This document shows positions 1 through 14,906 of a stretch of DNA of 14,906 bases, piece by piece. This DNA comes from Clostridia bacterium (GTDB lineage: Bacteria > Bacillota > Clostridia > UMGS1883), in contig JAFSBF010000107.1 in assembly GCA_017441965.1 (NCBI GenBank), positions 1 to 14,906 on the forward strand, in the 5' to 3' direction. A program made the position numbers and the translations under genes. Within the stretch, counting starts at the first letter, position 1, and each line of letters begins with the position of its first letter. The notes beneath the pieces are model-generated. The model was not told where the DNA came from, did not search any database, and was given only the letters and a program-made list of their open reading frames with translations.

Positions 1-67
1 GGGGAGACTTGAACTCCCGGCCTCTTGAACCCCATTCAAGCACGCTACCAAACTGCGCTACACCCAG
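1..67 (-). tRNA. tRNA-Pro (anticodon GGG), 3' end cut by window edge
   Basis: Read on the minus strand, the 5' acceptor strand CTGGGTG is followed by TA, a D-arm, an anticodon stem CTTGA/TCAAG and a T-arm GGGAG-TTCAAGT-CTCCC. The 7-nt anticodon loop ATGGGGT puts GGG at plus positions 31-33, which reads the proline codon CCC (and CCU by wobble). Only the first base of the 3' acceptor strand lies inside the window; the remaining six bases, the discriminator and any CCA lie beyond position 1. A consensus promoter sits immediately upstream (83-111). Confidence 0.95.
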
Positions 68-12439: not shown

Positions 12440-12471
12440 AACAACTGCCTCCAAAGTTCATATATGCATTT

Positions 12472-12500
12472 ATTATACATTTTTGGAAAGATTAAGTCAA
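12472..12500 (-). promoter_or_regulatory. Promoter of the L,D-transpeptidase gene
   Basis: On the minus strand TTGACT (12495-12500), a 17-nt spacer and TATAAT (12472-12477), a near-perfect sigma-A promoter, about 33 nt from the start codon. I see nothing else in the rest of the divergent gap up to 12589. Confidence 0.9.
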
Positions 12501-12589
12501 TAAATTAATATGGAAAAATATCACATTTTTTTGCTTTTCTTCGGGGACCCGCATATTATTAATAACGTTATAGTTTTTCTAAAAGTATG

Positions 12590-12618
12590 TTGAAAAAACA
12601 TAAAATATGTTGTATAAT
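12590..12618 (+). promoter_or_regulatory. Promoter of the small hydrophobic peptide (toxin) mRNA
   Basis: TTGAAA (12590-12595), a 17-nt spacer and TATAAT (12613-12618). The start is predicted near 12625. The 5' end would fold at once into a hairpin (12622-12643; stem GTCGGA/TCTGAC with a GAAA loop and one G-U pair), a typical stabilising 5' cap of long-lived mRNAs. Confidence 0.85.
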
Positions 12619-12690
12619 GTCTTTGTCGGAGAAATCTGACAAAAAGGTAAGACTGAAAACAGTGTAAAAGCTGGGCGGTTATGCCATCAT

Positions 12691-12709
12691 CTCCCTGAAA
12701 GGAGGTGGT
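12691..12709 (+). promoter_or_regulatory. Shine-Dalgarno sequestering hairpin of the toxin mRNA
   Basis: The ribosome binding site GGAGGTGGT (12701-12709) is complementary to ATCATCTCC (12686-12694), with loop CTGAAA between (9 bp including two G-U pairs). The G-U pairs form only in plus-strand RNA, which supports a role in the mRNA. The annotated span covers the loop side and ribosome binding site; the left arm starts at 12686. Confidence 0.6.
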
Positions 12710-12714
12710 AGCTT

Positions 12715-12783
12715 ATGGAATATGTGTACATAATGATATACATTATCACATTAATTGTGCTTATTATAACCATAAAAAAATAA
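12715..12783 (+). CDS. Tiny hydrophobic peptide, candidate type I toxin (22 aa)
   Basis: ATG to TAA encodes 22 residues beginning MEYVYIMIYII and ending IITIKK: a short acidic/polar N-terminus, one membrane-spanning run (about residues 6-20) and a di-lysine C-terminus. This is the form of type I toxins such as the Fst, TxpA or 'holin-like' peptides of Firmicutes, although I do not recognise this exact sequence. The strong ribosome binding site GGAGGTGG is six bases before the ATG. The gene has its own promoter, a roughly 90-nt leader with two hairpins, and an immediate terminator that starts within its last codons. An antisense RNA with a consensus promoter runs into it from the other side. 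Toxicity is inferred from this architecture, not shown. Confidence 0.72.
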   Translation: MEYVYIMIYIITLIVLIITIKK

Positions 12784-12813
12784 CGCCCACCGCCAAGTAG
12801 TGCGTTATTTTTT
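12775..12813. terminator. Shared bidirectional terminator of toxin mRNA and antisense RNA
   Basis: AAAAAATAACGC (12775-12786) pairs with GCGTTATTTTTT (12802-12813) around a 15-nt loop, giving U-tracts on both strands. The loop contains CCACC and CCGCC, complementary to GGTGG in the toxin ribosome binding site (12704-12708) and to GGCGG in its leader (12674-12678). This allows end-to-end pairing within the mRNA. Confidence 0.85.
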
Positions 12814-12830
12814 ATAAACGATATTTATTT

Positions 12831-12858
12831 GGCATAACCGTTTGAGGTCTTGCCTTTT
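12831..12858 (+). terminator. Second, weaker hairpin with T-tract downstream of the toxin
   Basis: GGCATAACC (12831-12839) and GGTCTTGCC (12846-12854) pair with a two-base internal mismatch and are followed by T4. It could be a back-up terminator for toxin mRNA that reads through the first. In the minus strand the same bases form the better-paired 5' hairpin of the antisense RNA. Confidence 0.4.
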
Positions 12859-12866
12859 CTGTATTC

Positions 12867-12895
12867 ATTATACTTAATAAAATCTATTTTGTCAA
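12867..12895 (-). promoter_or_regulatory. Consensus promoter of the antisense RNA
   Basis: On the minus strand TTGACA (12890-12895), a 17-nt spacer and TATAAT (12867-12872) match the consensus at all twelve positions. It points away from the topoisomerase gene and toward the toxin. No ORF follows it, so it must drive a non-coding RNA. Confidence 0.9.
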
Positions 12896-12970
12896 CCATT
12901 TTGGAAAAACTTTATACAAAAGTGTCATTTGTACGTGTCGGAAAAATGCTGAAACAATTTACATCAAAAT

Positions 12971-12999
12971 TTGCTTTTTTTTAAAAATTATGATATACT
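12971..12999 (+). promoter_or_regulatory. Extended -10 promoter of the topoisomerase gene
   Basis: TTGCTT (12971-12976), a 17-nt spacer and TATACT (12994-12999) preceded by TGA, an extended -10. A TATAAT at 13003-13008 is an alternative but has only a weak -35. GGAGG follows at 13018-13022, eight bases before the ATG at 13031. Confidence 0.65.
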
Positions 13000-13030
13000 G
13001 ATTATAATTGTACTTACGGAGGAAACTGAT

Positions 13031-14906
13031 ATGAACGAAGAAAACATTTCATTAGCTCTGGAAGGGATTACCCAGACCCTTGAAAAAAACTATATGCCCT
13101 ACGCAATGAGCGTAATTATATCACGTGCTATTCCTGAAATAGACGGTTTTAAGCCGTCACACAGAAAGCTTTTGTATACGATGTACAAAATGGGACTTTT
13201 GGGCGGTAACCGCACAAAAAGTGCCAATGTCGTAGGTCAGACAATGAAGCTTAACCCCCACGGCGATGCGGCAATTTACGAAACGATGGTCCGTCTTACC
13301 GAGGGGCATATGGCTCTTTTGCATCCACTCGTTGATTCAAAGGGTAACTTTGGTCGCCAGTACAGCCGTGATATGGCATATGCGGCATCCCGTTATACAG
13401 AGGTGCGCCTTCTTCCTATTTGCAATGAAATATTCGGTGATATAGATAAAAACACGGTGGAATTTGTGGATAACTATGACGGAACTCTTAAGGAGCCGTC
13501 ACTTCTTCCAACGGCATTCCCCAACATTCTCATAAATCCCAATCAGGGTATCGCAGTTGGTATGGCGAGCAATATTGCAAGTTTCAACCTGCGCGAGGTT
13601 TGCAATGCAACAATTGCCCTGATGAAAGATAAAAACGCAGACCTGTCAGAATATATAACAGGCCCCGACTTTTCAACGGGCGGATACCTTCTCAAAAATG
13701 ATGAGGCGATGGAGAAAATTTTCTCAAGCGGTACGGGCAGTGTCAGGGTGCGTGCAAAGTACAATTACGATAAAAAACAAAACATTATAGAGGTTACAGA
13801 AATCCCCTATACCGCAACTGTAGAGGCTATTATAGACAAGCTTGCCGAGCTTATAAAGGGCGGTAAGCTTCGTGATATAAATGATGTGCGTGACGAAACG
13901 GATAAATCAGGTCTTAAAATAACATTTGAGCTTAAGCGCGGTGTTGACCCTGATAAGCTGATGGCACGCCTTTTCAAGCTGACACCGCTTGAGGACAGCT
14001 TCAGCTGTAATTTCAACGTGCTGATTGACGGAGAGCCTATGGTGCTTGGCGTGCGAGACATTCTCAAACACTGGATTAATTTCCGTATGGAATGTATCCG
14101 CCGTATGCTGCAGTTTGATATTGAGAAAAAGAGTGCACGTCTTCATCTTCTGCAGGGACTTGAAAAAATACTGCTCGATATTGATAAGGCAATCTACATT
14201 GTCCGCAATACGCCCGAGGATGCAATGGTTGTACCAAACCTTATGTCAGGCTTTGGTATAGACAAGGTGCAGGCAGAATTTGTAGCGGAAATAAAGCTGC
14301 GTAATCTTAACAAGGAATATATTTTAAAGCGTACAAGCGAAATTGAAAAGCTTATAGCTGAAATAGACGACCTTAAAAAAACACTGGAAAGCGATGCACG
14401 TATCAGAAAGCTTATTTCAAAACAGCTTACTGAAATTGCCGATAAATACGGTGCAGAACGTAAAACAGTCGTTATTACCCCCGATGAAGAAGATACCCCC
14501 GTCGTAGAAAACTTTATTGAGGACTATAACGTACGTGTGTTTATGACAAAGGATAATTATTTCAAGAAAATTACCCTTGTATCGCTTCGTGCGGCATCAG
14601 AGCAAAAGTATAAAGAGGGCGACTCGCTTCTTTGCGAGGCAGAGGCAACAAACAGAATGGATATGCTTTTCTTTTCGGACAAGCAGAACGTATACAAAAT
14701 GCGTCTTAACGATATTCCCGATACAAAGGCAAGCGCACTGGGTGAATATCTGCCCAATATTATCGGTATGGAGCCTGATGAAAAAATAATCTACGCAACA
14801 CCCGGCTATGACTACAGTGGATTTATGCTGTTTGCATTTGAGAGCGGCAAGGTCGCAAAGGTTGATATGAAGGGCTACGAAACAAAAACCAACCGTAAAA
14901 AGCTGA
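13031..14906 (+). CDS. Type IIA topoisomerase subunit A, GyrA/ParC-like (3' end beyond window)
   Basis: An uninterrupted frame of 625 codons runs from ATG 13031 off the window edge. It encodes the DNA-breaking subunit of a gyrase or topoisomerase IV. The N-terminus (YMPYAMSVIISRAIPEIDGFKPSHRKLLY) and winged-helix region are typical. The active-site tyrosine is Y122 in SRYTEVRL, and PNQGIAVGMASNI is conserved. The coiled-coil tower spans roughly 340-490, and a C-terminal beta-propeller begins near residue 505 (NVRVFMTKDNYFKKITL). The quinolone-contact helix reads NPHGDAAIYET, with alanine at A80 where Ser83/Ser80 lies in E. coli GyrA/ParC, and E84 at the acidic position. The sequence is far from canonical GyrA and resembles a Clostridia ParC-like paralogue. 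No B-subunit gene is in view, and the missing C-terminus prevents a GyrA-box test. Confidence 0.93.
   Translation, partial: MNEENISLALEGITQTLEKNYMPYAMSVIISRAIPEIDGFKPSHRKLLYTMYKMGLLGGNRTKSANVVGQTMKLNPHGDAAIYETMVRLTEGHMALLHPLVDSKGNFGRQYSRDMAYAASRYTEVRLLPICNEIFGDIDKNTVEFVDNYDGTLKEPSLLPTAFPNILINPNQGIAVGMASNIASFNLREVCNATIALMKDKNADLSEYITGPDFSTGGYLLKNDEAMEKIFSSGTGSVRVRAKYNYDKKQNIIEVTEIPYTATVEAIIDKLAELIKGGKLRDINDVRDETDKSGLKITFELKRGVDPDKLMARLFKLTPLEDSFSCNFNVLIDGEPMVLGVRDILKHWINFRMECIRRMLQFDIEKKSARLHLLQGLEKILLDIDKAIYIVRNTPEDAMVVPNLMSGFGIDKVQAEFVAEIKLRNLNKEYILKRTSEIEKLIAEIDDLKKTLESDARIRKLISKQLTEIADKYGAERKTVVITPDEEDTPVVENFIEDYNVRVFMTKDNYFKKITLVSLRAASEQKYKEGDSLLCEAEATNRMDMLFFSDKQNVYKMRLNDIPDTKASALGEYLPNIIGMEPDEKIIYATPGYDYSGFMLFAFESGKVAKVDMKGYETKTNRKKL

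What the first reader, a model, noticed from the sequence alone, without database searches (positions are those of the whole stretch)
12590..12895. Candidate type I toxin-antitoxin locus with a 22-residue membrane peptide
Seen directly: a plus-strand promoter, a long structured leader, a strong ribosome binding site, a 22-codon hydrophobic ORF, a two-way terminator, and facing it a full-consensus minus-strand promoter with no ORF behind it. Convergent mRNA and antisense RNA overlapping at their 3' ends is the layout of type I systems such as txpA/RatA and bsrG/SR4. The peptide sequence itself is not one I recognise, so it may be a new family. Toxicity is inferred.
Basis: partly seen in the sequence, partly recalled or inferred. 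Interest (0 to 1): 0.8.

Follow-up and report, generated by a model that had tools for sequence, protein, structure and literature searches.

The report
Likely mobile peptide toxin-antitoxin RNA locus
A gut bacterium carries a tiny gene for a 22-residue membrane peptide facing a small antisense RNA that probably keeps it silent, and the same unit with many different peptides recurs in related gut bacteria and on a few phage contigs, which points to an uncharacterised family of RNA-controlled, toxin-like genes.

Summary
Window 12590-12895 is one copy of a multicopy, apparently mobile unit: a toxin-like mRNA (structured leader, SD hidden in a hairpin, 22-codon membrane peptide), a shared bidirectional terminator, and a convergent short RNA from a 12/12 consensus promoter. 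I collected 182 records (two are chance hits); an antisense model finds the unit in 59 of 391 sampled genomes of the class. The peptide frame is mostly under purifying selection (pN/pS 0.19-0.46) and the terminator covaries. Of 43 leader-anchored places 39 have the antisense gene; two are cut by contig ends, one is chance, one has a decayed frame. About 19 records keep the antisense without an intact toxin. At the window's site three relatives are empty. The layout works like Fst or BsrG/SR4, but tested defining features of both fail. New: the 5' ends of the two RNAs share sequence in the same sense and change together (27 diverged loci, 0 of 20,000 permutations as high); the purpose is unknown, and arm-exchange pairing was not supported. 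Transcription, toxicity and neutralisation are untested.

The parts
12590..12618 (+). promoter of the toxin-like mRNA (TTGAAA-17-TATAAT)
   Evidence: 11 of 12 consensus positions
12624..12641 (+). 5' hairpin of the mRNA (TGTCGGAGAAATCTGACA)
   Evidence: fold
12646..12685 (+). leader hairpin GGTAAGACTG...CGGTTATGCC, the 5' domain shared in the same sense with the antisense RNA; its GGGCGGTTAT can also pair with the terminator arm ATAACGCCC
12686..12709 (+). hairpin that hides the Shine-Dalgarno sequence (SD 12701-12706)
12715..12783 (+). ORF of 22 codons, MEYVYIMIYIITLIVLIITIKK*, predicted membrane peptide with a C-terminal KK
12774..12813 (.). bidirectional terminator shared by both RNAs; the last AAA AAA codons and the stop lie in the U-tract and stem of the antisense terminator
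12772..12860 (-). predicted antisense RNA, about 85-89 nt
12831..12854 (-). 5' hairpin of the antisense RNA, GGCAAGACCTCAAACGGTTATGCC, highly conserved
12867..12895 (-). antisense promoter TTGACA-17-TATAAT (12/12)
12539..12965 (.). approximate extent of the segment absent from the same site in three relatives of the genus (edges set by eye)

Best explanation
It is a type I toxin-antitoxin-like unit of a large unnamed family of Clostridia. SHOWN from sequence: convergent promoters, a toxin-like mRNA whose SD lies in a predicted hairpin, a selected 22-residue membrane peptide, a shared covarying terminator and a short antisense gene with a consensus promoter; the unit is multicopy, sits at a site that is empty in three relatives, occurs with swapped peptides, and is also on viral contigs. 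INFERRED: the mRNA folds into an inactive form (SD hairpin, plus pairing of GGGCGGUUAU in the leader with AUAAC-GCCC at the start of the terminator); the consensus promoter makes an excess of antisense RNA that binds through the complementary terminator stretch (about 40 nt), blocks translation and has the mRNA cut; if the antisense falls away the peptide is made and harms or stops the cell through the membrane. In one subtype (14 of 14 loci picked by peptide type) the toxin start lies inside an overlapping frame with its own SD, so translation is probably coupled, as reported for hok/Sok.
For: Recurrence: 12 of 21 family genomes by DNA; 17 of 28 order genomes and 59 of 391 class genomes by antisense model. 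182 records, 155 with a membrane ORF by an automatic filter (L234 looks spurious), 132 distinct peptides, 154 of 155 records with K or R among the last three residues. pN/pS 0.19 for the window's peptide type (22 sequences; 0.25 on codons 8-19, 20 sequences), 0.29-0.46 for four other types, 0.51-0.52 over all 59 22-codon frames. Terminator covariation. Leader-anchored search: 43 places, 39 with antisense. About 19 antisense records without an intact toxin; the 7 of them that one search scored all have a 12/12 promoter. Paralogs in 8 genomes: mean cognate duplex -97 to -106 kcal/mol, mean non-cognate -35 to -64. Empty site. Two of the 5 viral contigs were scanned and hold tail genes, one also integrases. 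Overlapping frame 14 of 14.
Against: No RNA and no toxicity data. The window peptide matches no known toxin family. In G008 some non-cognate pairs form duplexes as strong as cognates (best -108.1, cognate mean -101.0). Absence of toxin-only loci rests on about 40 places, one search scored at most two candidates per genome, and two places could not be judged: G083:C92 has a complete frame and terminator but the contig ends before the antisense hairpin, G172:C201 ends inside the frame. Type C peptides have pN/pS 0.46 in frame and 0.45 in the +1 frame, so coding selection is not distinct there. In one search the leader paired less well with its own antisense tail than with those of paralogs.
Confidence: 0.8

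Rival explanations
1. The pair controls a harmless small membrane protein (a regulator or signal peptide), not a toxin; the antisense RNA simply tunes it.
For: Toxicity is untested; small membrane peptides can be regulators (recalled); the frame is conserved as protein.
Against: Different peptides occur on one antisense unit, copies are numerous and a site is empty in relatives, and antisense genes were found without toxin but no toxin was shown without antisense.
Confidence: 0.13
2. A miniature mobile element whose matched inverted ends are recognised by a transposase; the RNAs are incidental.
For: Multicopy, site empty in three relatives, and the two 5' regions form an inverted repeat that changes together.
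Against: The repeats lie about 107 and 111 bases inside the apparent insert, with the promoters outside them. A short T-rich word stands at both edges, but a similar pair is also in the empty site of L273, so no target duplication is shown (by eye). Coding selection and terminator covariation are not explained.
Confidence: 0.04
3. A chance small ORF between two terminating transcripts.
For: AT-rich intergenic DNA gives promoter-like sites (7 found, 3.3 expected).
Against: Conservation across many families, pN/pS, covariation.
Confidence: 0.01

Closest known systems
Fst/Ldr (par of pAD1; RNA I/RNA II)
   Same: Convergent promoters, shared bidirectional terminator, SD hidden in a 5' stem-loop, short membrane peptide (33 residues in Fst of pAD1; passages of PMC7472228).
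   Different: Fst has DNA direct repeats giving a second complementary region; here the two 5' domains are inverted (same sense in the RNAs) and the complementarity control is flat. No P, G, C or W in the window peptide, so no PXXXG(C) motif. Antisense about 85 nt here against about 40.
TxpA/BsrG family (bsrG/SR4, txpA/RatA)
   Same: Toxin mRNA and antisense overlap at their 3' ends. Sub-threshold Rfam BsrG matches on the mRNA strand: window 20.9 bits (E 0.004-0.005), L236 34.3 bits (E 6e-5 in 20 kb), including pairing of GGG in the leader with CCC beside the terminator.
   Different: Gathering score 55 not reached; L231 and L018 matches (E 0.11, 0.28) and the window's RatA match (E 1) are at chance level. 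Overlap about 40 nt against 100-140 bp (passages of PMC6562991). 22 residues.
Clostridioides difficile type I systems (for example CD0977.1-RCd11)
   Same: Small peptide with membrane segment and charged C terminus, several per genome, many on prophages (abstract and one section of PMC6563280; names from a listing).
   Different: Peptides of 34-59 residues; no direct sequence comparison with them was made here.
hok/Sok (mok coupling)
   Same: Subtype D has an overlapping upstream frame with an SD; coupling to a leader peptide is named for hok/Sok in PMC6562991 (passage; the name mok is recalled).
   Different: Antisense arrangement differs (5' complementarity there); the window's own copy has no such frame before its start.
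orz-only loci of E. coli
   Same: Antisense antitoxin genes kept without the toxin (abstract and one section of PMC11264685).
   Different: Different family; expression of the orphans here is untested.

Membership tests
Type I toxin-antitoxin (general) | small hydrophobic peptide with membrane segment and charged end | tested here: met
   hydropathy and sequence only
Type I toxin-antitoxin (general) | antisense gene complementary to the toxin mRNA, with its own promoter | tested here: met
   sequence level only:
Type I toxin-antitoxin (general) | antisense RNA is transcribed | not testable with these tools
   needs RNA data
Type I toxin-antitoxin (general) | peptide is toxic and the antisense neutralises it | not testable with these tools
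   indirect support only:
Fst/Ldr | convergent promoters and bidirectional terminator | tested here: met
Fst/Ldr | direct repeats DRa/DRb giving complementary RNAs | tested here: not met
   reverse-complement control flat, cognate 6.94 against 7.15; same-sense repeats instead
Fst/Ldr | PXXXG(C) motif and conserved tryptophan in the toxin | tested here: not met
   no P, G, C or W in the window peptide
Fst/Ldr | YUNR U-turn in the recognition loop | tested here: inconclusive
   CUUG/UUUG seen by eye in antisense terminators, not counted and place in the loop not established; not universal in Fst either
TxpA/BsrG | Rfam BsrG or RatA at gathering score | tested here: not met
   window 20.9 and 22.4 bits against 55 and 49; best BsrG among 20 other loci 34.3
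TxpA/BsrG | antisense overlaps the 3' end by 100-140 bp | tested here: not met
   about 40 nt from predicted ends (passage)
Hol_Tox (PF16935) | Pfam match at cut-off, window peptide | tested here: not met
   window: no family at E <= 1
Hol_Tox (PF16935) | Pfam match at cut-off, relatives | tested here: inconclusive
   2 of 38 peptides at best E 0.025; bits against the cut-off were not shown and the two were not identified (none of the 8)
PepG1/SprG (NF041589) | NCBIfam match at cut-off | tested here: inconclusive
   window none; 1 of 38 relatives at E 0.0045, bits not shown
hok/mok | toxin frame overlapped by an upstream frame with an SD | tested here: met
   anatomy only, subtype D, 14 of 14; not in the window's copy

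The most novel reading that the evidence does not exclude
Each locus carries a matched 5' domain on both its RNAs, same sense and co-diverging, which works as an identity tag (for a shared protein, a shared decay route or RNA-RNA recognition), on a portable antisense-terminator scaffold that swaps peptides between genomes and persists as an orphan antitoxin: a new class of type I regulation in gut Clostridia.
Probability: 0.3. Interest if true: 0.78.

Novelty: new variant of a known kind. Interest (0 to 1): 0.62.

Why it matters
If it behaves as inferred, this is a common RNA-controlled toxin-like family in largely uncultured gut Clostridia that the family libraries used here do not name, with up to 17 model matches in one genome. 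Its many natural variants (different peptides on one scaffold, orphan antisense genes, co-diverging RNA 5' ends) make three questions testable: what keeps paralogous antisense RNAs specific, why antitoxins survive without toxins, and whether the two RNAs of a pair are recognised through a common 5' element.

Tried and rejected
Look-ups that gave nothing: window peptide in Pfam, NCBIfam, PADLOC at E <= 1 and NCBIfam at E <= 10; a 311-base DNA search in phage and plasmid records at E <= 0.01, although 5 viral metagenome contigs match the antisense hairpin; a pattern for the second hairpin type in viral contigs (0) and a leader pattern (1, already known).

Arm-exchange pairing between the two 5' hairpins as the cause of the shared domain: tested by duplex energies against permuted partners, not supported within genomes (67 loci) or across 20 diverged loci (mRNA 3' arm with antisense 5' arm, 4574 of 20,000 permutations as good). 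Only the antisense hairpin's own arms were locus-specific (21 of 20,000). In one search the leader paired with the cognate antisense tail worse than with paralogs (2997 of 3000 permutations as good or better). The leader-terminator pairing is strong family-wide (-12.6 against -8.4 kcal/mol with shuffled partner, 133 loci) but not locus-specific, so it may be constraint or composition.

The shared-5'-domain effect is uneven: of 23 genomes with two or more loci, cognates score higher in 17, equal in 4 (G155, G041, G005, G006) and lower in 2 (G213, G009); in G008 and G069 the difference is small.

Rejected: Fst direct repeats; miniature transposon ends. U-turn loops seen by eye, not counted, not claimed.

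Dropped rows: alignment A1 holds 69 of 98 collected antisense sequences, near-duplicates left out by hand. 182 of 207 records kept after removing short, N-containing and duplicate ones. 27 of the 182 had no standard frame: by eye 2 chance, 6 whose frame runs on into the terminator, 19 lost, truncated or degraded. 80 of the 96 stretches were stored and read. 38 of 132 distinct peptides were scanned against families. Regions fetched are a hand-picked part of the matches. In one search the 39 of 43 count was made by eye against the places listed (one).

Literature: search listings; passages of PMC7472228 and PMC6562991; outline, abstract and one section of PMC6563280 and PMC11264685. No description of this family was seen in these; subscription papers are mostly not held.

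Full report
OBSERVATION. The region 12590-12895 lies between an L,D-transpeptidase gene (minus, to 12454) and a DNA topoisomerase IV/gyrase A gene (plus, from 13031). Both RNAs fold better than each of 200 shuffles (z -4.5 and -5.1). The consensus terminator scan reported nothing, so the terminator rests on the folds and on covariation.

IT IS A FAMILY. The window's own genome has a full copy at C7, a full copy of another subtype at C11, the end of one at C136 cut by the contig, and a decayed leader at C71. In the family 12 of 21 genomes match by DNA. A pattern for the antisense hairpin found 96 stretches in named genome contigs; of the 80 listed, all but L035 (Bryobacterales) bear Clostridia-type names, many from ruminant gut. 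L035 and L065 are chance hits by eye. A covariance model of the antisense RNA (R1, 69 sequences) finds it in 17 of 28 genomes of the order at E <= 0.01, 59 of 391 of the class at E <= 0.001 (completeness 80 or more) and 3 of 398 of a phylum draw at E <= 0.0001; one of these three (G730) is outside the class and shows the same layout by eye. Matches reach 17 in G008. Several loci are in tandem (G164, G053, G155). Searches over 40 genomes use stricter filters, so counts may be low.

THE PEPTIDE IS SELECTED. 155 of 182 records have a membrane frame by an automatic filter, 132 of them with at least 5 of 6 SD bases; there are 132 distinct peptides. For the window's type pN/pS is 0.19 (22 sequences), and frames +1 and +2 give 0.69 and 1.96; the other four types give 0.29-0.46. 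The types were picked by N-terminal residues, which biases this, so I repeated it on codons 8-19: 0.25 for type B (20 sequences), 0.51 for all 59 22-codon frames. Type C is not separated from its +1 frame (0.46, 0.45). Sequences vary widely while a hydrophobic core and a basic end stay.

THE ANTISENSE IS SELECTED. The two stems keep pairing in 96.6% of cells with 125 double changes (shuffled 42, 0 of 500 as high; slides by 1-3 columns give 0-25). Related sequences can exceed such shuffles without structure, but the slides share that relatedness. The promoter is 12/12 in 84 of 90 matches. The last Lys codons and the stop lie in the antisense terminator (sequence).

ASYMMETRY. Searching with the leader only gave 43 places in 29 of 391 genomes. 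39 have the antisense (place by place, or for G318). Of the rest, G083:C92 has a complete frame and terminator but its contig ends before the antisense hairpin, G172:C201 ends inside the frame, G028 is inside what looks like a coding gene, and G000:C71 has a decayed frame and no antisense. From the antisense side about 19 of 182 records have lost, truncated or degraded the toxin, often with unrelated DNA up to the antisense terminator. Antitoxin-only loci are known for orz in E. coli (PMC11264685). This is what a harmful peptide would leave behind, but the numbers are small.

MOBILITY AND MODULES. The transpeptidase-topoisomerase gap is short and empty in G017, G020 and G019 and holds other small frames in G015. 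The insert in the window is about 430 bases by eye. The five relatives L009-L013, at 71-84% identity, lie elsewhere: no transpeptidase or topoisomerase match was found beside them. From just before the stop to the end of the antisense hairpin the window is identical over 85 bases to L095, a buffalo-gut MAG, whose peptide is 47% alike by the same score; seven such pairs were found among the records. Two of the five viral contigs were scanned: L130 holds integrase, baseplate and tail genes, L132 tail genes.

THE SHARED 5' DOMAIN. The antisense begins GGCAAGACC..GGUUAUGCC and the mRNA leader GGUAAGACU..GGUUAUGCC, same sense. In diverged lineages both change together, for example GAGCAAGGCUC and GAGUAAGGCUC (L200), AGCACCGGCUU in both (L213), GCAAGGGUACA in both (L236). 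Local alignment of antisense nt 1-36 with the leader window: cognate 12.43, permuted among paralogs of the same genome 11.46 +/- 0.18 (100 loci, 23 genomes, 0 of 20,000 as high); 27 diverged loci 12.19 against 8.88 +/- 0.35 (0 of 20,000), and the same for each half. The reverse-complement control is flat. The effect is uneven: 17 of 23 genomes higher, 4 equal, 2 lower. Arm exchange was not supported. Common descent of the two ends with conversion, a shared binder or a shared decay signal remain open.

SUBTYPE D. In 14 of 14 loci picked by peptide type the peptide start lies 22-31 bases inside an overlapping frame, always in the same relative frame. The outer frame's SD scores 4-6 of 6; the peptide's own scores 3 in 12 loci and 4 in two (L221, L104), where the two are equal. 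The outer frame's protein is not conserved (pN/pS 2.26 in the corresponding shifted frame). This fits translational coupling.

KNOWN SYSTEMS. By layout it works like Fst/RNA II and BsrG/SR4. It is not filed under either: direct repeats and motif fail for Fst; gathering score and overlap length fail for BsrG/RatA. The BsrG matches of the window and L236 are below threshold but on the right strand and include the long-range pairing, so a remote link is possible; two further ones are at chance level.

VERDICT. A new, widespread variant of the type I kind, probability about 0.8 for toxin-antitoxin function, all functional steps inferred. The recount changed facts of detail only, so the odds stand.

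Noticed in passing
window 12454-13031; L272, L273, L274, L275: The gap between the L,D-transpeptidase and topoisomerase genes is a small insertion site: empty in three relatives, the TA-like unit in the window, and in L274 a set of small frames (one looks like an XRE-type regulator by eye).
   Followed up: partly
L002 1440-1581: Decayed copy in the same genome: leader kept, frame of 12 codons, no antisense found.
   Followed up: partly
L192, L194, L208, L215, L235, L238, L248, L249, L252, L254, L043, L054, L100 and others: Antisense genes with hairpin and terminator but no intact toxin; in many, unrelated DNA begins at the antisense terminator.
   Followed up: partly
L191, L213, L018, G053:C112: Two or three copies in tandem within about 0.3-1.6 kb.
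   Followed up: no
L200-L203, L312 (G396, G318): Subtype with longer peptides (36-38 aa in L200-L203) ending in a strongly basic tail.
   Followed up: no
L243 1-256: A copy lies close to the RNase P RNA gene (Rfam).
   Followed up: no
window 1-67: Second, partial tRNA at the window edge in Rfam, not reported by ARAGORN.
   Followed up: no
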